A stretch of DNA of 64,000 nucleotides from Chloroflexus aggregans DSM 9485 (lineage in GTDB: Bacteria > Chloroflexota > Chloroflexia > Chloroflexales > Chloroflexaceae), in contig NC_011831.1 in the NCBI RefSeq assembly GCF_000021945.1, forward strand, positions 2,927,353-2,991,352, written 5' to 3'. The translations under genes and the position numbers were made by a program. Positions 1,182 to 60,819 of this stretch are shown here, one piece after another. The notes under the pieces are model-generated. The model ran no database searches. It saw only the letters and a program-made list of their open reading frames with translations, and was not told the origin of the DNA. Position 1 is the first letter of the stretch, and the number at the start of each line of letters is the position of its first letter.

Positions 1182-1979
1182 CTAACGGCTACCGGCCTCT
1201 ACCCGCATCACCAGCTCGGCAAGGGCTAGGTTAAACTCGGCGGGTCGCTCAATAGCACTAAGATGACCTGCTCCGGGAATGACGACAAACCGGCTACCGG
1301 GAATCGCTTCGTGCATCGTGCGAGCTTCGCTGGGTGGTGTAAGCGTATCCTCTGCTCCCACGACAACGGTGACCGGAACACGAATCTGGCTGAGTAACGA
1401 GGTAGAGTCGGGTCGAGCAGCCATCGCATGGAGCGCGGCAGCAATACTTTCTGGCGGATTAGCCGCCGCTATTGCCTGCAATTCAGCCCGTAGTGATTCA
1501 GCGGCTGTCGGCGCCAGCAGATTCGGCAAGAGGCGTTCGGCCAACGCTGCACTGCCTTCGCGGAGCACAAGTTCGGCATTAGCGGCACGATTAGCGCGGG
1601 CTGTGTCTGTATCAGCCGTTGCGCGCGTGTCGGCCAGCAAGAGGCCGCCGATCCGTTCGGGGGCTTGGCGGAGGATGGCGAAGGCAATGTACCCACCCAT
1701 CGATAAGCCGGCCACTACTGCTCGTTCAATACCTAATGCGTCAAGGAGCGCAATCACATCGGCAGCGTAATCGTCGAGCGATTGGGGCAGTGGTATGGGT
1801 GGTGAGTTGCCGAATCCGCGCAGATCGGGTGCGATCATCCGAAACCGGTCGGTAAGGGTCGTCAGTTGGGCGCGCCACAAGGCTGAACTCAGCGGAAAAG
1901 CGTGCAGTAAAACTACCGGTAGACCGCTACCCACATCGGTGTAGTGGATTTGCGCACCGGTTGGAGAGCTGATGTTCAT
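1182..1979 (-). CDS. Alpha/beta-fold hydrolase (3-oxoadipate enol-lactonase-like)
   Basis: The 265-residue protein is a complete single-domain alpha/beta hydrolase. The oxyanion region is VVLLHAFPLSSALW, the nucleophile elbow is GLSMGG with Ser as nucleophile, the acid loop is VVVGAEDTLTPP, and the catalytic His lies in PGAGHLSAIERP. The closest recognisable style is the enol-lactonase/haloperoxidase branch, but the substrate cannot be read from sequence. The ATG at 1977-1979 is preceded by a very strong AGGAGGAGG site (1982-1990), so the 55-residue upstream extension of the frame is rejected. It appears monocistronic. Probably cytoplasmic, with no signal peptide. Confidence 0.88.
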   Translation of the reverse strand: MNISSPTGAQIHYTDVGSGLPVVLLHAFPLSSALWRAQLTTLTDRFRMIAPDLRGFGNSPPIPLPQSLDDYAADVIALLDALGIERAVVAGLSMGGYIAFAILRQAPERIGGLLLADTRATADTDTARANRAANAELVLREGSAALAERLLPNLLAPTAAESLRAELQAIAAANPPESIAAALHAMAARPDSTSLLSQIRVPVTVVVGAEDTLTPPSEARTMHEAIPGSRFVVIPGAGHLSAIERPAEFNLALAELVMRVEAGSR

Positions 1980-54427: not shown

Positions 54428-56237
54428 TCAACTTGCCGCCGGCGCTGACGTCGGGCGCGCCGCCGGATGCTCGTAACGAGCGAAGATTCGCCGGTAGTGC
54501 GGTGATGTACGCAGCAGCTCCTCGTGGGTGCCGGCGGCGACGAGCCTCCCGCCATCGAGCACCAGGATCTGGTCGGCCCAGCGGATCTGCGCCAGCCGGT
54601 GGGTGATCGGCAACACCGTGCGCCCTTGCTGTGCCTGCCGGATCGCGCGCTGAATCTCGTCTTCGGTGGCGCTATCGATCGCGCCGGTGCTATCGTCGAG
54701 AATGAGAATGCGCGGGTTGGCGAGAAACGCGCGGGCCAGTGCAATCCGCTGCCGCTGCCCACCCGAAAGGGTCACGCCGCGTTCGCCAATGACCGTCTGA
54801 TAACCGTTTGGCATACGACTGATGAACTCGTGGGCTTGGGCGGCGCGCGCCGCCGCCTCGATCTGTTCGTGGGTGGCACCGGGAGCGCCGAAGGCTATAT
54901 TCTCACCGATCGTGCGAGAGAAGAGGAAAATATCCTGCTCGATCTTGCCGATTTGTGAACGGAGCGCATCGAGATTCCGGTCACGCACATCCACCCCATC
55001 GATCAACACCCGCCCGCTGGTCGTGTCGTAGGTGCGGTTGACGAGCTGGGTCAACGCGCTCTTGCCGCTGCCCGTCTGACCAACGATTGCCACAGTCTGT
55101 CCGGCGGCAATGCGGAACGAAATGTCACGTAGCACCTGATGCGGTTCTTCACCGGGATTCGCGGTGAAATCGAAGCTCACGTTCTCGAACACAATCTCAC
55201 CTCGCATCGGTGCGCGGTAGCCATTCGGGTTCTCGTCGAGGTCAGTCTCGGCATTGATGATCGAGAGAATACGGCGCGCACCGGCCAAGCCGGCCTGAAA
55301 GACCGAGAAGGCGAAGAGCGAGATGAAGGTTGGGAAGCGCAAAGCATTCATTAAGCCGATCACTGCCACGACCTGCCCTATCCCAACTTCACCAATGCTA
55401 TAGAGCCAGAGCGCATGAAAGAATTCGGCTCCCAACGCAATCCCAAACAGTAACAGCGGCAAGTAGCGGGCCTCGATGTCGCCTTGTGCCACAAACAGAT
55501 CGCGGAACCGTTGCGCGTTACGCAGATACTTCGAGCGTTCGAGCGCCTCGCGCGCGCTGGCCTTCACCACCTCGATCCCGCTGATCGTCTCTTCCAAGCC
55601 GGCATTCATCACCCCATACTGCTCGCGCTGACGCTGAATAACCGGCATCAACCGACGCAGATACCAATGCGTCGTCAGGATATAACCCGCTACAAAGATC
55701 AGTGGCACGATGATTAAGCGCGGTTCGGTAAAAAAAGATGAAGGTCAGCGGTACGACGATCCCCAACACCGTCTCAGAGATCAAGGTAGCGCCGGGTACG
55801 ATCATATTCGCCACTAGATTGGTGTCGTCGGTGGCACGGGCCATCAAGTCACCTGCGCGCTGGCGATCGTGAAAAGCCTTGCTCTTGGCTAGCAAGCTCT
55901 TGTAAAACTCTTACCGCACATCAGCTTCGACCCGCGCCGCCACGTTCTCAGCCGACAAGCTGCCGATCAACGCCGTCACGCTATCCGTCACCATCATGGC
56001 TAGCACCGCCAGCGCCAATCCGGTCAAGGCGGCGTAATCAGGCGGGCCGCTCAGCACGTCGGCGACGCGCCCGATCAACACTTGCGCCCCTGAATACACC
56101 GCCCATGAGGTGAGGAAACACAGATGGAATCCCAACACAAACGGCCAGTAGCGCGCCACATGCGAGAGCAGCCAACGCGCCACGCTTCGTCGGTCATAGG
56201 TGTGGGCTGAAGCAACTGTAAATTCACTGCGTTGCAC
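54428..56237 (-). pseudogene. ABC exporter half-transporter (MdlA-like), interrupted
   Basis: Three reading-frame pieces make one exporter. The N-terminal part starts at GTG 56235-56237 (GGGAGGAG upstream) and reads to ENVAARVEADVR, where an in-frame TAA (55911-55913) falls. Homologues have Asp there, and the frame continues EFYKSLLAKSKAFHDRQRAGDLMARATDD. A second lesion is an extra base in a seven-A run (55730-55736), after FIFF; the original frame resumes TEPRLIIVPLIFVAGYIL. The ATP-binding domain is intact in sequence (GQTGSGKS, LSGGQRQR, ILILDDSTGAID), with catalytic Glu replaced by Asp, normal for the degenerate half of a heterodimer. Sequencing error is an alternative explanation. Confidence 0.85.
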
Positions 56238-56502
56238 GATTATGTCTCCTCCCGTTTCATCGTAGCGCTGAGGTAGCAGCGGTTGGGGAATGATACGGCG
56301 CTCCGTCCATACCTGGCTAGCCGTGAACATCGCCATCTGGAGCGACACAACACCACCTTGCAGATGTAGAACATTGTTGCGAGTATAGCTAATCGGTTGT
56401 GGCTTGAGATCGGTCGTAAGGTGTAACCTTTTTCCTATGTTCACCGTATAGATGACGTGCTACAATGCGACTGTATTCACGGAGTTGGGGAGATACTGAG
56501 TA

Positions 56503-59500
56503 ATGACTGCGCGGTTGATCGCTGTCAGTGGCCCACGAGCCGGACACTTATTTCAACTTAGTGATACACCGATTACAATCGGTCGGTCGCCTGATAATAG
56601 CATCGTGATCGCGAGCCAGCTTGCTTCACGCCGGCATGCCGAAATTCGGCGTGAGGGTGGAGTGTATGTGCTGGTTGATCTGGGCAGCTCGAACGGGACG
56701 TTGCTGAACGGCAAACCGGTGCAGCGGCAGATTCTCCGAAGCGGTGATACCTTTGTGATTGGCGATGAGGTCTTTCGGTTTGAAGAACTGCCCGCGGCAA
56801 CGCTTGAACCGACGATTTCGCTTGCCGCAACATCACCCCCGCCGGAAAGTTGGAGTACACCGTCTCCACCTGCGGCAGGTTGGGGAACCCCACCGGCGCC
56901 GACCGGCGGTAACGTTCGTATCCCCGCCCCTCTTCCTTCTGCTGCCCCACCGGTTTCACCGCAAGCACGCCGTTTCCCCGTCTGGCTTATACTCACCGGT
57001 CTGTTTACCTGCATCATCCTGGCTGCTGCCGTAGCCGGTGGCGTGTGGTTTGTGAATCGCATCGGTACTGATGGTGGGGGTGTGGTTAGCTCCGGTGGCG
57101 GTGCGAATACTACCGGTGGTGGAAATGTGAACGAATCTGGTTCACCTGTACCGATACCGGAGATTACCCCAACCCGTGAACTACCGCCCAATGCGGCCGA
57201 TTGGACGGTGTTGGTGTATCTCGATGGTGATAACAATCTGGAGTCGGATGCCATTGCGGATTTTCTCGAAATGGCCCGAGTTGGATCGACCGAGCGTGTA
57301 CATATCGTCGTTGAATTCGACCGCATCCGCTCGCCAGAGTTTTGGGACGACAAACGGTATGACAATTGGGAAGGAACGCTACGCTTTCGGGTCGAAAAGG
57401 GGATGGAACCAACCCGTGCCAATGCGCTCGCCGATCTTGGTGAGCGCAACATGGGCGACCCGGCGACCCTCACCGACTTTCTAGTTTGGGGAATTGAGAC
57501 GTACCCGGCCCAACGGTATGCCATCATCTTGTGGGATCACGGTGCCTCGTGGCTAGGTATTGCCAGTGATGATACCGATGGCGATGCGCTCAATCTGCCG
57601 GAGATCGGCTCGGCGTTTGAGACTGCGCTCAGGCGAACGCGGATCGGTGGCTTTGAATTGATCGGGTTTGATGCCTGTCTGATGGCACAGATCGATGTCT
57701 TGCATACGGTTGCACCTTACGGGCGGGTAGCCGTTGCCTCCGCCGAACTGGAACCGAACACCGGTTGGGCGTGGGATGCGTGGCTAGCGCAGTTGATCAA
57801 TAATCCGGCCCAGGACGGCTATGTGATAGCGCCGGTCATTGTCCAGACGTATATGGATTCGTTTGGCACCGGCAGCGCTGATGAAGTCACCCTATCGGCT
57901 TTTGATCTGAGCCGGACCGATGAGCTGATCAACCGTCTTGACGCCTTCGCGCAGACATTGCAACGTGACGTGCAACAGAGCTATACCGCCATCGGGCAAG
58001 CGCGTTCGTTTGTGAATGTCTATGCACCCTCTTACGCCGAAGAGTTTAACGCTATCGATCTCCCGCACTTTTTAGCATTGTTACCGCAGCAAGGGGCGAG
58101 CGGGGCGGTGCGTGAGCGGGCCAATGAATTATTGCAGTTGATCGAGGAGGCGCGACTTGCCAACGGTGTCGGTGCGTATCATCGCCAGAGTGGTGGCTTG
58201 TCGATCTACTTCCCCCAGCTTGCCGAGCTGTACGCGGAAGCCTATGAACGTATTTCGCCGATACCACGGGCAACAGCGTGGGATGACTTCTTGGCTGCGT
58301 ACTATCAGGCGGGGAATACGGCTGTTCGGCGCCCCACCATTCGCGATCTCCTGCTCAACCGTGAGGTAGTCAGTGTCAATGCACCGGCCAGTCTCACCGG
58401 TACGGTAGCCGGCAGCGATATTGCGTATGTCTTCCAGTTTATCGGTATTCCCAACGAACGCCGAGATACGGTCGATTTAATCTTGGTTGATTTCGTCTAT
58501 CCACCCGGCACAACCCCCGGCAATCCAATACCGGACTGGAGCGATGGCGAGTTTAGTCTGCGTTTAAATTGGGACGCAACCAATTGGTATTTGAGCAACG
58601 GCACCGATTCGATTGAGGTTTTGCTTGGCCCGATCAAGTACGGTGTCGAGTTCTACGGCGTCGAAGGAGTATATACATCGGCGACGACCGGTGAACAGAT
58701 CAACGCCGGTCTTATTTTTTCAATCCAAGGCAATGAAGCGCAATTGGTGCGGATTTGGGGTTTCCCCCGTCTTGCCGGTAAGCAGGAACCGCAGCCCTTC
58801 GAGCTAACGCCACGGGCCGGCGATACGTTCACCGCGTACTACCGTTCATATACCGATACCGGTAGTGGGTTAGAAGCCAAGCGCTTTGAAGGGCAAACGA
58901 TAACCTTTGGTAATGCGCCGCTGAAAGCCGTTCTTGGCCCAACACCGAGCGGTGATTATGTGATGGGCTTTCTCGTGCGCGATATTGCCGGAAATTATCA
59001 CTACGACTACGTTGAGATAACAGTAGATAATACCAACGTCCCAACCACACCGACCGGCGCCGTCTTACCATCGTCAAGCACGACACCGCCCGGCTTTCAA
59101 CGCTACGAAAGCTCACTCGGTTTTGCTATCGACCATCCCGAAACGTGGCGCGCATTTGATACCGGTAATGATCGTGTAATCTTTTCCGATCGAGCTATTG
59201 ACGATGGCGTGTATGTGGTTGTCGATGTGTATAAGTCGGTTGCCGATGATCCAACGGTGGCAACCCGCCTCTTGATGGAAGAGTTAAAGCAGTTGGTAAG
59301 GCAGAATGGTGAACTGCGTGATGACGTAAGCAATGTTACGGTCGCCGGCTTTGATGGCTTAAAGATCGAATATGCCTACCAGACGAGTCAAGGGAGCACG
59401 AGCTATGTAGTGGCAATTGTCGTCACAAGCCCAAATACGCAGTGGTCGTATCTACTCCTCTTTGAAGCGCCGGAAAAGAGCTTCGATAGTCAGTTAACCT

Positions 59501-59538
59501 TGTTTAATACGATGCTGAGCAGCCTCGTGATCGGGTAG
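56503..59538 (+). CDS. Membrane FHA-clostripain (C11) protease with C-terminal DUF1795-like domain
   Basis: The 1011-residue protein begins with a cytoplasmic FHA domain (GRSPDN 27-32, SRRH 42-45, GSSNGT 61-66), which binds phosphothreonine. A Pro-rich linker leads to one transmembrane helix (about 159-183), then a Gly/Thr linker. Residues about 232-560 form a clostripain-type C11 cysteine protease domain: DWTVLVYLDGDNNLE, catalytic His346 in ILWDHGASW, catalytic Cys392 in GFDACLMAQID. A beta-rich region follows, and a C-terminal domain like PsbP/DUF1795 (YESSLGFAIDHPETWRAF ... LLLFEAPEKSFDSQ). The protease would lie outside the membrane. A histidine kinase gene follows. Confidence 0.88.
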   Translation: MTARLIAVSGPRAGHLFQLSDTPITIGRSPDNSIVIASQLASRRHAEIRREGGVYVLVDLGSSNGTLLNGKPVQRQILRSGDTFVIGDEVFRFEELPAATLEPTISLAATSPPPESWSTPSPPAAGWGTPPAPTGGNVRIPAPLPSAAPPVSPQARRFPVWLILTGLFTCIILAAAVAGGVWFVNRIGTDGGGVVSSGGGANTTGGGNVNESGSPVPIPEITPTRELPPNAADWTVLVYLDGDNNLESDAIADFLEMARVGSTERVHIVVEFDRIRSPEFWDDKRYDNWEGTLRFRVEKGMEPTRANALADLGERNMGDPATLTDFLVWGIETYPAQRYAIILWDHGASWLGIASDDTDGDALNLPEIGSAFETALRRTRIGGFELIGFDACLMAQIDVLHTVAPYGRVAVASAELEPNTGWAWDAWLAQLINNPAQDGYVIAPVIVQTYMDSFGTGSADEVTLSAFDLSRTDELINRLDAFAQTLQRDVQQSYTAIGQARSFVNVYAPSYAEEFNAIDLPHFLALLPQQGASGAVRERANELLQLIEEARLANGVGAYHRQSGGLSIYFPQLAELYAEAYERISPIPRATAWDDFLAAYYQAGNTAVRRPTIRDLLLNREVVSVNAPASLTGTVAGSDIAYVFQFIGIPNERRDTVDLILVDFVYPPGTTPGNPIPDWSDGEFSLRLNWDATNWYLSNGTDSIEVLLGPIKYGVEFYGVEGVYTSATTGEQINAGLIFSIQGNEAQLVRIWGFPRLAGKQEPQPFELTPRAGDTFTAYYRSYTDTGSGLEAKRFEGQTITFGNAPLKAVLGPTPSGDYVMGFLVRDIAGNYHYDYVEITVDNTNVPTTPTGAVLPSSSTTPPGFQRYESSLGFAIDHPETWRAFDTGNDRVIFSDRAIDDGVYVVVDVYKSVADDPTVATRLLMEELKQLVRQNGELRDDVSNVTVAGFDGLKIEYAYQTSQGSTSYVVAIVVTSPNTQWSYLLLFEAPEKSFDSQLTLFNTMLSSLVIG

Positions 59539-59571
59539 TGCTTGCGCTACGCAACGAGGAGGGGTTGAGCC

Positions 59572-60819
59572 GTGGGGGGGCATCGTCAACGTGAAGTAGG
59601 AAAGCGGTATACCGCGAGCGCAATACCGGATATTGCGACTCTCAAGACCTGTTTACGAATGGGGGTGGCCGGTGGGTATACCCCGTCTGCCCTGATCCAG
59701 TTGGCACATACGTTAAGTTATGCGACCCTCGCTGAAGGGGGATCGGTATTGGTTGCCGGTGCTGCCGGTGGTCATTGGGCCGATTTAGCGCTCCAAGCGA
59801 TTGAACTGCCGATCCAACGTCACAATCTTACCGTCCAAGGCAATGGCGTGGCGTTAATCGGCGTAGGGGCACGCCACGGTTATGCACTGGTTGCCGTTCC
59901 CATCGAGCCGTTGGAGCGCAATCCCGATCTGCAATTACACGATGCGCATTGGAGTTATGCACCGGAAGATCTCTTGACCATTGGTGAGGTGTTTAACGGG
60001 GCAATCCCGATGTTGCAGCGGGTAGCCCTCTTGCGATTGCAACCGCTACCTACCAATGTGTTGTTGCAAATTGCTCAGCAAGCTCTTAATTTTGCGGCGC
60101 GCCAGCACGTCACGCTTGCATTGGCGAATCGCGTCCTACAAGAGCGACTGCGTAATCATGAGGAACAGACGCGCATGATCGTGCATGATATGCGTGCGCC
60201 GTTGCATACGCTGCTGATCAGCTTGAAGGCGTTGCAGCGTCAGACCTTCGATGCCAATATGCACAATGAATTGTTGGACGTGGCCCGTCATTATGTACTT
60301 AGTCTCACCGAGACGTTGCTCGATTCGGCCCGTTTGGAAACAAGCAGTTGGGCGTTACAGTTACATCCGACCAATCTGGTAACGTTGATCAAGACGGTGT
60401 GTGAACCGTTCTGTCATGTGAGCCATCCTGACCAACCGCAGGTGAAGGTAGAACTGCCGGCAGAGTTGCCGCTGGTCATGGTCGATCATCACCTGATCGA
60501 GCGCGTGATTACGAATCTAGTCTCGAACGCGATCAAGTTTACTCCATCTGGTGGTCAAGTTACTGTGACCGCCGGTCTCACAAACGATGGGCATAGCGTG
60601 GAGATTCGCGTAAGTGATACCGGCCAGGGTATTCCACCGGAGGCACGCGATCGCATCTTCGATCGGTTCTACCAGGTGAATGCTAACGATCGGCGACGTG
60701 GCACCGGTTTGGGCCTCTATTTCTGCCGGTTGGCCGTCGAGGCGCACGGTGGTAGTATTGCGCTGGAGAGCGAAGTGGGGCGTGGTTCGACCTTTAGCGT
60801 ACAGTTGCCGATGCAGTAA
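59572..60819 (+). CDS. Soluble sensor histidine kinase
   Basis: A 415-residue kinase without membrane helices. The first 180 residues form an unrecognised sensory domain (SYATLAEGGSVLVAGAAGG, VALIGVGARHGYALVAVPI) resembling a DICT/GAF-like fold only by pattern. The dimerisation helix carries phospho-His205 in RMIVHDMRAPLHTL. N-box VITNLVSNAIKFTPSGG, G1 VSDTGQGIPPEARDRIFDRFYQVNA and G2 GTGLGLYFCRLAVEAHGG are complete. The GTG at 59572 has GAGGAGGGG upstream. No response regulator is adjacent. It follows the FHA-protease gene by 33 bp, suggesting co-expression. Confidence 0.9.
   Translation: MGGHRQREVGKRYTASAIPDIATLKTCLRMGVAGGYTPSALIQLAHTLSYATLAEGGSVLVAGAAGGHWADLALQAIELPIQRHNLTVQGNGVALIGVGARHGYALVAVPIEPLERNPDLQLHDAHWSYAPEDLLTIGEVFNGAIPMLQRVALLRLQPLPTNVLLQIAQQALNFAARQHVTLALANRVLQERLRNHEEQTRMIVHDMRAPLHTLLISLKALQRQTFDANMHNELLDVARHYVLSLTETLLDSARLETSSWALQLHPTNLVTLIKTVCEPFCHVSHPDQPQVKVELPAELPLVMVDHHLIERVITNLVSNAIKFTPSGGQVTVTAGLTNDGHSVEIRVSDTGQGIPPEARDRIFDRFYQVNANDRRRGTGLGLYFCRLAVEAHGGSIALESEVGRGSTFSVQLPMQ

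What the first reader, a model, noticed from the sequence alone, without database searches (positions are those of the whole stretch)
56503..60819. Transmembrane FHA-clostripain protease with a neighbouring soluble kinase
A phosphothreonine-reading domain inside the cell is linked through one helix to an external cysteine protease with intact His346/Cys392 and a C-terminal PsbP-like domain, and a histidine kinase follows 33 bp later. This would be inside-out control of a surface protease, a signalling layout I do not recognise as described.
Basis: partly seen in the sequence, partly recalled or inferred. Interest (0 to 1): 0.62.

Follow-up and report, generated by a model that had tools for sequence, protein, structure and literature searches.

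The report
Membrane protease with internal phosphothreonine reader
A filamentous photosynthetic bacterium carries a protein-cutting enzyme, probably outside the cell, joined through the membrane to an internal domain that reads phosphorylated threonine, with a conserved threonine beside that domain, so phosphorylation inside the cell may control protein cutting outside it.

Summary
The 1011-aa protein has an FHA domain, a Pro-rich linker, one transmembrane helix, a clostripain (C11) protease, a beta domain and a PsbP-like domain. Orthologues occur in 29 of 158 Chloroflexia genomes searched. In all 27 distinct proteins that include the FHA, G27/R28/S42/H45/N64 and H346/D390/C392 are invariant.

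The histidine kinase follows directly in 8 of 8 Chloroflexus and one relative. In 8 loci a permease lies between, in 12 it was not seen, and in five of those (Roseiflexus type) the next gene is a transmembrane Ser/Thr kinase, the kind whose mark an FHA reads.

New: a threonine (T104) in a [D/E]-x(0-2)-T-[L/V/I] motif follows the FHA in 26 of 27 proteins, inside an otherwise variable, disordered linker (shuffled expectation 0.21). Five FHA-linker-TM relatives with other ectodomains carry it too.

Best reading: a GarA/OdhI/DgcB-like FHA-tail phospho-switch coupled through the membrane to a surface protease. Anatomy is shown; topology, switch and coupling are inferred. My literature listings showed no report of this combination. 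New variant of a known kind.

The parts
56503..56790 (+). FHA domain, residues 1-96 (G27, R28, S42, H45, N64)
   Evidence: Pfam E 1.2e-20; model strands 2-96; nearest solved FHA: OdhI 4qcj, Z 14.6, 1.9 A, 41% identity
56812..56814 (+). Thr104, proposed phospho-acceptor of the FHA tail (E-P-T-I context)
   Evidence: Thr in 26 of 27 distinct orthologues, L/V/I at +1 in 26 of 26; shuffled-linker expectation 0.21 of 27
56791..56982 (+). variable Pro-rich linker, presumed cytoplasmic, residues 97-160
   Evidence: pLDDT below 50 at 99-121 and 123-159; length 32-123 aa among 27 orthologues
56977..57057 (+). single transmembrane helix, about residues 159-185
   Evidence: hydropathy 158-186, helix 161-178 in model, hydrophobic in the aligned orthologues
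57058..57186 (+). disordered Gly/Ser/Thr-rich linker, presumed extracellular, residues 186-228
   Evidence: pLDDT below 50 at 178-217
57214..58293 (+). C11 (clostripain) protease domain, residues 238-597; H346, D390, C392
   Evidence: Pfam 2e-43; VIA-align Z 40.6 to clostripain 9cip; invariant residues
58336..59052 (+). beta-rich domain, residues 612-850, shared with FHA-less C11 proteins
   Evidence: found with C11 but without FHA in 31 of 79 genome-contig loci, including Herpetosiphon and Anaerolineae
59092..59526 (+). PsbP-like domain, residues 864-1008 (present in 16 of 27 FHA-bearing orthologues)
   Evidence: Pfam 1.4e-5; Z 15.0 to cyanobacterial PsbP 2xb3; distribution
59572..60819 (+). 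histidine kinase without a clear TM segment, N-terminal alpha/beta domain, H205
   Evidence: Pfam HATPase_c 2.5e-31; model; PDB matches to HK853 and others; hydropathy; neighbour in Chloroflexus

Best explanation
The protein is a bitopic surface protease under internal phosphothreonine control. A Ser/Thr kinase phosphorylates Thr104 in the tail beside the FHA. The FHA then binds that phosphothreonine, in its own chain or in a neighbouring copy, and the change in pairing or clustering at the membrane controls when and where the external C11 domain cuts surface or matrix proteins after basic residues. Shown: domain order, conserved FHA and catalytic residues, conserved tail Thr, and a Ser/Thr kinase as next gene in five Roseiflexus-type genomes. 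Inferred: topology, phosphorylation of Thr104, FHA binding to it, substrate, and coupling to the protease. The histidine kinase is probably co-expressed with it in Chloroflexus and is not the writer of the mark.
For: FHA residues G27, R28, S42, H45, N64 invariant in 27 of 27. T104 motif in 26 of 27 against 0.21 expected from shuffled linkers, in a disordered linker. QDAT[LV] follows the FHA in five FHA-linker-TM proteins with other ectodomains (L150, L151 twice, L152, L153) out of eight FHA-then-TM proteins in that sample. Closest solved FHAs are OdhI/GarA, and DgcB is also matched; in DgcB the FHA ligand derives from its own N-terminal region (PMC6733907 abstract). Next gene in five Roseiflexus-type loci is a Ser/Thr kinase with HRDIKPQN loop, DFG and a TM segment, 52-85% identical among the five. 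In an Anaerolineae genome a kinase-FHA fusion lies about 1.3 kb upstream of an FHA-less C11-beta-PsbP gene. Net charge favours FHA inside. The host has 14 Ser/Thr-kinase and 13 FHA matches.
Against: Nothing here shows phosphorylation, binding or proteolysis. T104 is missing in L051, whose FHA and catalytic residues are intact; in fragment L157 the Thr lacks the acidic and hydrophobic neighbours; of eight FHA-then-TM proteins sampled, L156 and L158 have a Thr-Val without the full motif and L064 has none. Disordered linkers on both sides of the helix make a rigid signal through the membrane unlikely, so coupling would go by clustering or localisation. No Ser/Thr kinase is linked in Chloroflexus, and the best host match to the Roseiflexus kinase covers only its kinase domain (51%).
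Confidence: 0.5

Rival explanations
1. Tether only: the FHA and its tail dock the protease onto phosphorylated partners (a kinase, a scaffold, the cell pole or septum), and the protease itself is constitutively active.
For: No Lys/Arg within 22 residues after the catalytic His in 23 of 27 proteins, so the self-cleavage site seen in PmC11 (Lys147; PMC4850288 passages) is mostly missing and a latent zymogen of that type is not indicated. Both membrane-flanking linkers are disordered.
Against: It does not by itself explain a conserved acceptor-like Thr in the same chain beside the FHA.
Confidence: 0.3
2. Outside-in or two-component wiring: the protease and the neighbouring histidine kinase form one pathway, the FHA part being secondary.
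For: The pair is adjacent in 8 of 8 Chloroflexus and one other genome, and C11-permease-kinase order occurs in 8 more loci.
Against: In 12 of 29 loci the kinase was not seen: 5 have a Ser/Thr kinase next, 4 have the permease only, 3 have neither (two of these cut by a contig end). General knowledge: histidine kinases do not make pThr.
Confidence: 0.1
3. An ordinary membrane-anchored exoprotease in which the FHA is a leftover without function.
For: FHA-less C11-beta proteins, mostly with a hydrophobic segment before C11, occur in 31 of 79 genome-contig loci.
Against: Invariance of the FHA residues in 27 of 27 proteins; the 17 others in alignment A1 are 45-78% identical to the window protein. 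Conservation of T104.
Confidence: 0.06
4. Reversed topology, with the C11 domain in the cytoplasm.
For: There is no experimental topology.
Against: Positive charge on the FHA side of the helix; FHA-less relatives mostly have a hydrophobic segment near the N-terminus with C11 following, as in anchored exported proteins.
Confidence: 0.04

Closest known systems
GarA/OdhI FHA tail switch (Mycobacterium, Corynebacterium)
   Same: closest solved FHA by fold (Z 14.6, 39-41% identity); a Thr motif in a flexible tail beside the FHA; Ser/Thr-kinase control proposed
   Different: GarA/OdhI act on metabolic enzymes and their phosphorylated tail is N-terminal (PMC8546545 passages); here the tail is C-terminal to the FHA and leads into a TM helix and protease
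Bdellovibrio DgcB
   Same: FHA that senses a phosphopeptide from its own chain to switch an output enzyme (PMC6733907 abstract); FHA fold match Z 13.3
   Different: the output is a GGDEF cyclase; no transmembrane helix between sensor and enzyme (recalled)
LapD/LapG inside-out signalling
   Same: a cytoplasmic signal controls a periplasmic cysteine protease (PMC3032545 abstract and section titles)
   Different: the signal is c-di-GMP and LapD and LapG are separate proteins; LapG is not a C11 peptidase (recalled); here sensor and protease share one chain
FHA-PrsW fusions
   Same: FHA domains fused to the peptidase PrsW are mentioned as signalling versions (PMC3482391 passage), so FHA plus membrane protease is not unheard of
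   Different: PrsW is a different peptidase family within the membrane (recalled); no external clostripain domain
Clostripain / PmC11 (peptidase family C11)
   Same: fold, His-Cys dyad, S1 Asp
   Different: the solved C11 structures align only to the protease part; activation-loop Lys/Arg missing in 23 of 27 here
Kinase-linked FHA proteins such as MupFHA-PknQ
   Same: an FHA protein encoded near a Ser/Thr kinase and phosphorylated by it (PMC4238996 abstract and passages)
   Different: no protease output in the passages seen

Membership tests
Peptidase family C11 | Pfam Peptidase_C11 above cut-off and clostripain fold | tested here: met
   149.7 bits against 25.8; Z 40.6 to 9cip
Peptidase family C11 | catalytic His and Cys, S1 Asp two residues before Cys | tested here: met
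   H346, D390, C392 invariant in 27 of 27; PmC11 His133/Asp177/Cys179
Peptidase family C11 | self-processing at Lys/Arg in the loop after the catalytic His | tested here: inconclusive
   no Lys/Arg in the 22 residues after His in 23 of 27; other processing sites are not excluded, and I do not know that all C11 enzymes need it
Peptidase family C11 | proteolysis after Arg/Lys | not testable with these tools
   needs an enzyme assay
FHA domain | five conserved residues Gly, Arg, Ser, His, Asn (as listed in PMC4238996) and the beta fold | tested here: met
   G27 R28 S42 H45 N64 in 27 of 27; Z 14.6 to OdhI
FHA domain | phosphothreonine peptide binding | not testable with these tools
   needs a binding assay
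GarA/OdhI/DgcB-type FHA-tail switch | conserved Thr motif in a flexible tail next to the FHA | tested here: met
   26 of 27; disordered in model
GarA/OdhI/DgcB-type FHA-tail switch | phosphorylation of the tail and binding by the FHA | not testable with these tools
   needs phosphoproteomics and a binding assay
LapD/LapG-type inside-out protease control | cytoplasmic input changes activity of the external protease | not testable with these tools
   anatomy only
LapD/LapG | homology to LapD or LapG | not tested
   no direct comparison was made; Pfam at E up to 1 lists FHA, Yop-YscD_cpl, C11 and PsbP only
Two-component pair with the histidine kinase | conserved adjacency across orthologues | tested here: not met
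   directly next in 9 of 29 loci, one gene away in 8, not seen in 12, some of them cut by contig ends

The most novel reading that the evidence does not exclude
Phototrophic Chloroflexales have a modular class of transmembrane devices, FHA plus acceptor Thr plus flexible linker plus one helix plus interchangeable ectodomain, in which a phosphothreonine switch inside the cell controls an extracellular output. The C11 protease is one output and ZU5-bearing ectodomains are others. This would be phosphothreonine-driven inside-out signalling to a surface protease, with the Roseiflexus Ser/Thr kinase as a membrane partner that may sense the envelope through its ectodomain.
Probability: 0.35. Interest if true: 0.75.

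Novelty: new variant of a known kind. Interest (0 to 1): 0.58.

Why it matters
As far as I recall, bacterial FHA signalling is known mainly for cytoplasmic outputs. A protein in which the FHA, its likely acceptor Thr and an external protease are one chain offers a compact test of whether a Ser/Thr kinase can control a surface enzyme directly. In Chloroflexus aggregans a secreted protease is reported to promote cell aggregation (title of Morohoshi 2015, seen only in the reference lists of PMC11434263 and PMC8004040), and the gliding machinery is described as not yet identified (PMC11434263 passage), so a regulated surface protease would be of physiological interest there. A link between this gene and aggregation or gliding is speculation.

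Tried and rejected
Histidine kinase as writer of the FHA mark: set aside on known chemistry and because the neighbour changes between genera. PsbP-like domain as a sign of a photosynthetic role: missing in 11 of 27 FHA-bearing orthologues, and its fold also matches mycobacterial envelope proteins such as LpqN (Z 13.5). Link with phototrophy: in the 61-genome set all 26 genomes with the FHA-C11 protein have a reaction-centre match and none of the 16 without one has it, but 19 with a reaction centre lack it; confounded by ancestry, not used as evidence. Permease as a lost Chloroflexus partner: no orthologue in the host genome, best match 40% over 150 residues. Host orthologue of the Roseiflexus kinase: only the kinase domain matches (51%, residues 10-304); its ectodomain matches a 739-aa host protein (35%) whose kinase-like part has HGD and no DFG. 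Activation by loop self-cleavage as in PmC11: basic residue absent in 23 of 27.

Wider FHA-C11 fusions: of 504 relatives in genome contigs only the best 80 were kept (79 loci); FHA and C11 share an ORF in 22 of these 79, all Chloroflexales-type records. The other 424 were not seen. One further genome, G072, gave an FHA match only, in a 304-aa frame, not followed. The HK N-terminal domain was not identified: no Pfam match in residues 1-148 at E up to 1, and no named sensor domain stood out in the 50 PDB rows shown. The beta domain was not folded alone, so its fold family is open. The third protein was a meaningless 33-aa placeholder and is dropped.

Literature, open-licence library only: (forkhead-associated with clostripain) returned 0 papers. 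Searches (12 of 12 listed; 12 of 177 listed; 2 of 2; 10 of 14 listed) showed no title or abstract start on such a protein; passages of three papers were read and none describes it. PMC7727763 lists a C. aurantiacus hypothetical protein, A9WCD7, as a C11 peptidase (passage); whether it is the orthologue was not established.
Full report
WHAT IS THERE. The window lies in a single-contig genome of 4,684,931 bases; the size fits Chloroflexus aggregans DSM 9485 from memory, and three of the closest records are titled Chloroflexus. The ORF at 56503-59538 codes for 1011 aa and is followed 33 bp later by a 415-aa ORF at 59572-60819. Pfam gives FHA (24-87), Peptidase_C11 (238-597) and PsbP (864-1008); the second ORF has HATPase_c and a HisKA match below its cut-off. 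An AlphaFold2 model built on 42 sequences (mean pLDDT 81.4) shows a folded FHA at 2-96, a disordered stretch to about 160, a helix at 161-178, another disordered stretch to about 217, then the C11 domain, a beta domain (612-841) and the PsbP-like domain (865-1006). Structure comparison gives clostripain at Z 40.6, cyanobacterial PsbP at Z 15.0 and OdhI/GarA FHA domains at Z 14.6.

CONSERVATION. Orthologues are present in 29 of 158 genomes of the class (my count of the rows: 23 in family f1, 6 in family f4). In two of these (L044, L050) the ORF begins at a contig edge and lacks the FHA part; for the first, an FHA fragment ends another contig of the same genome (L157). The other 27 proteins, the window included, are distinct and were aligned: G27, R28, S42, H45, N64 of the FHA and H346, D390, C392 of the protease are invariant in 27 of 27. 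D390 corresponds to Asp177 of PmC11, described as the likely primary S1 residue for basic specificity (PMC4850288 passages). PsbP is present in 16 of 27. The C11-plus-beta part is wider: 31 of 79 genome-contig loci have it without an FHA match, including Herpetosiphon and Anaerolineae; two of the 31 (L080, L087) are the contig-edge fragments just named. FHA and C11 share an ORF in 22 of 79.

NEIGHBOURS. In 29 loci (window, L033-L057, L076, L079, L082) the histidine kinase follows directly in 9 (8 of 8 Chloroflexus plus L079). An FtsX/MacB-type permease and then the kinase follow in 8 (L040, L042, L043, L044, L045, L047, L050, L082; the kinase is cut by the contig end in L042 and L050). The permease without a detected kinase occurs in 4 (L046, L048, L051, L076; little sequence is left in L051). 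A Ser/Thr kinase follows in 5 (L052, L053, L055, L056, L057). Three show none of these, two cut by a contig end (L041, L054) and one with an opposite-strand neighbour (L049). The five Ser/Thr kinases are 52-85% identical to each other, have an HRDIKPQN loop and DFG, and a TM segment near 393-453 (L056 has a second); the one scanned, L055, has a carboxypeptidase-regulatory-like match just above its cut-off and an SH3 match below its cut-off beyond the helix. The ORFs on the other side of the protease gene differ among these loci while this adjacency stays. An Ig-like (FlgD_ig) surface-type gene lies just upstream of the protease gene in L042, L054, L076 and the L157 fragment, and within about 2 kb in L040, L043 and L082; its host relative (L068:47-1399) sits instead beside a small FHA gene. 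I note it as a possible substrate without further evidence.

THE TAIL THREONINE. After the FHA the linker varies in length (32-123 aa) and sequence, except for a Thr: 26 of 27 proteins have it, with L, V or I next and D or E one to three residues before. Shuffling each linker 2000 times gives an expected 0.21 of 27 with the motif in the first 22 residues. This control ignores relatedness, so it shows that composition does not explain the motif and is not a significance test. The only other columns at 90% or more in residues 97-157 are prolines P112 and P141, 25 of 27 each. The exception is L051, whose FHA and catalytic residues are intact. The fragment L157 has a Thr there without the acidic and hydrophobic neighbours. 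Among eight proteins with an FHA followed by a TM segment and no C11 or transporter part, five from Roseiflexus-type genomes (L150, L151 twice, L152, L153) carry QDAT[LV] right after the FHA, two (L156, L158) have Thr-Val without the full motif, and one from the host (L064) has neither. ZU5 was matched above its cut-off in L152 and L156 and weakly in three others. Acidic residues before and a hydrophobic residue after Thr fit the preference of bacterial Ser/Thr kinases as I recall it.

HOW IT MAY WORK. The nearest FHA structures, GarA/OdhI, belong to proteins with a kinase-phosphorylated tail (PMC8546545 passages), and DgcB's FHA takes its activating phosphopeptide from its own N-terminal region (PMC6733907 abstract). 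By analogy a Ser/Thr kinase would phosphorylate T104 and the FHA would bind it, within the chain or between chains. Because both sides of the helix are predicted disordered, I favour control by clustering or localisation over a rigid push through the helix. The usual C11 activation loop lacks a Lys/Arg within 22 residues of the catalytic His in 23 of 27 proteins, so regulation by self-cleavage there is not indicated. Topology rests on charge bias (mean net +2.6 before, +0.4 after the helix) and on analogy.

AGAINST MY READING. No phosphorylation, binding or activity was shown. The linked Ser/Thr kinase is limited to five related genomes, and Chloroflexus has none at the locus, although the host has 14 Ser/Thr-kinase matches elsewhere. 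One orthologue lacks the Thr. The FHA could be only a tether.

VERDICT ON NOVELTY. The parts are known and so are both principles (FHA-tail switch; inside-out control of an external protease by LapD/LapG, PMC3032545 abstract). FHA fusions to another membrane peptidase, PrsW, are mentioned in print (PMC3482391 passage). The union with an external clostripain in one chain did not appear in the listings, which cover open-licence papers only and were partly capped. I rate it a new variant of a known kind.

Noticed in passing
window 54428-56444 (-): The ABC-transporter gene upstream is split into three ORFs (177, 125, 426 aa) where Chloroflexus relatives have one of 605-617 aa (L034, L036-L039); it looks broken, or the assembly has errors there.
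   Followed up: partly
L102:2474-5464 (+): An Anaerolineae protein fusing a Ser/Thr kinase, an FHA and a sortilin/BNR-type region, about 1.3 kb upstream of an FHA-less C11-beta-PsbP gene.
   Followed up: partly
L150, L151, L152, L153, L156: FHA-linker-TM proteins with ZU5-like or unidentified ectodomains, five of the six with the QDAT[LV] tail motif; possibly a wider family of phospho-controlled membrane proteins.
   Followed up: partly
L171:4238-6454 (-): A 739-aa host protein with an atypical kinase-like part (HGD, no DFG), one TM segment and an ectodomain like that of the Roseiflexus Ser/Thr kinase.
   Followed up: partly
L068:47-1399 (+) and 1474-1803 (-): Host relative of the Ig-like gene that lies near the FHA-C11 gene in other genera; here it sits next to a 110-aa FHA protein.
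   Followed up: no
L161:3212-5962 (-): The only other C11 match in the host genome, 917 aa, about 3.7 kb from a Ser/Thr-kinase match.
   Followed up: no
L120:6164-9028 (+): A Chloroflexota C11 protein with no FHA match but a short tail containing DEPTVRV before its TM segment, similar in style to the T104 motif.
   Followed up: no
L095, L096, L097, L098: Short TM-C11 paralogues (442-471 aa) without FHA, beta or PsbP domain, in genomes that also carry the FHA-C11 protein or a contig-edge fragment of it.
   Followed up: no
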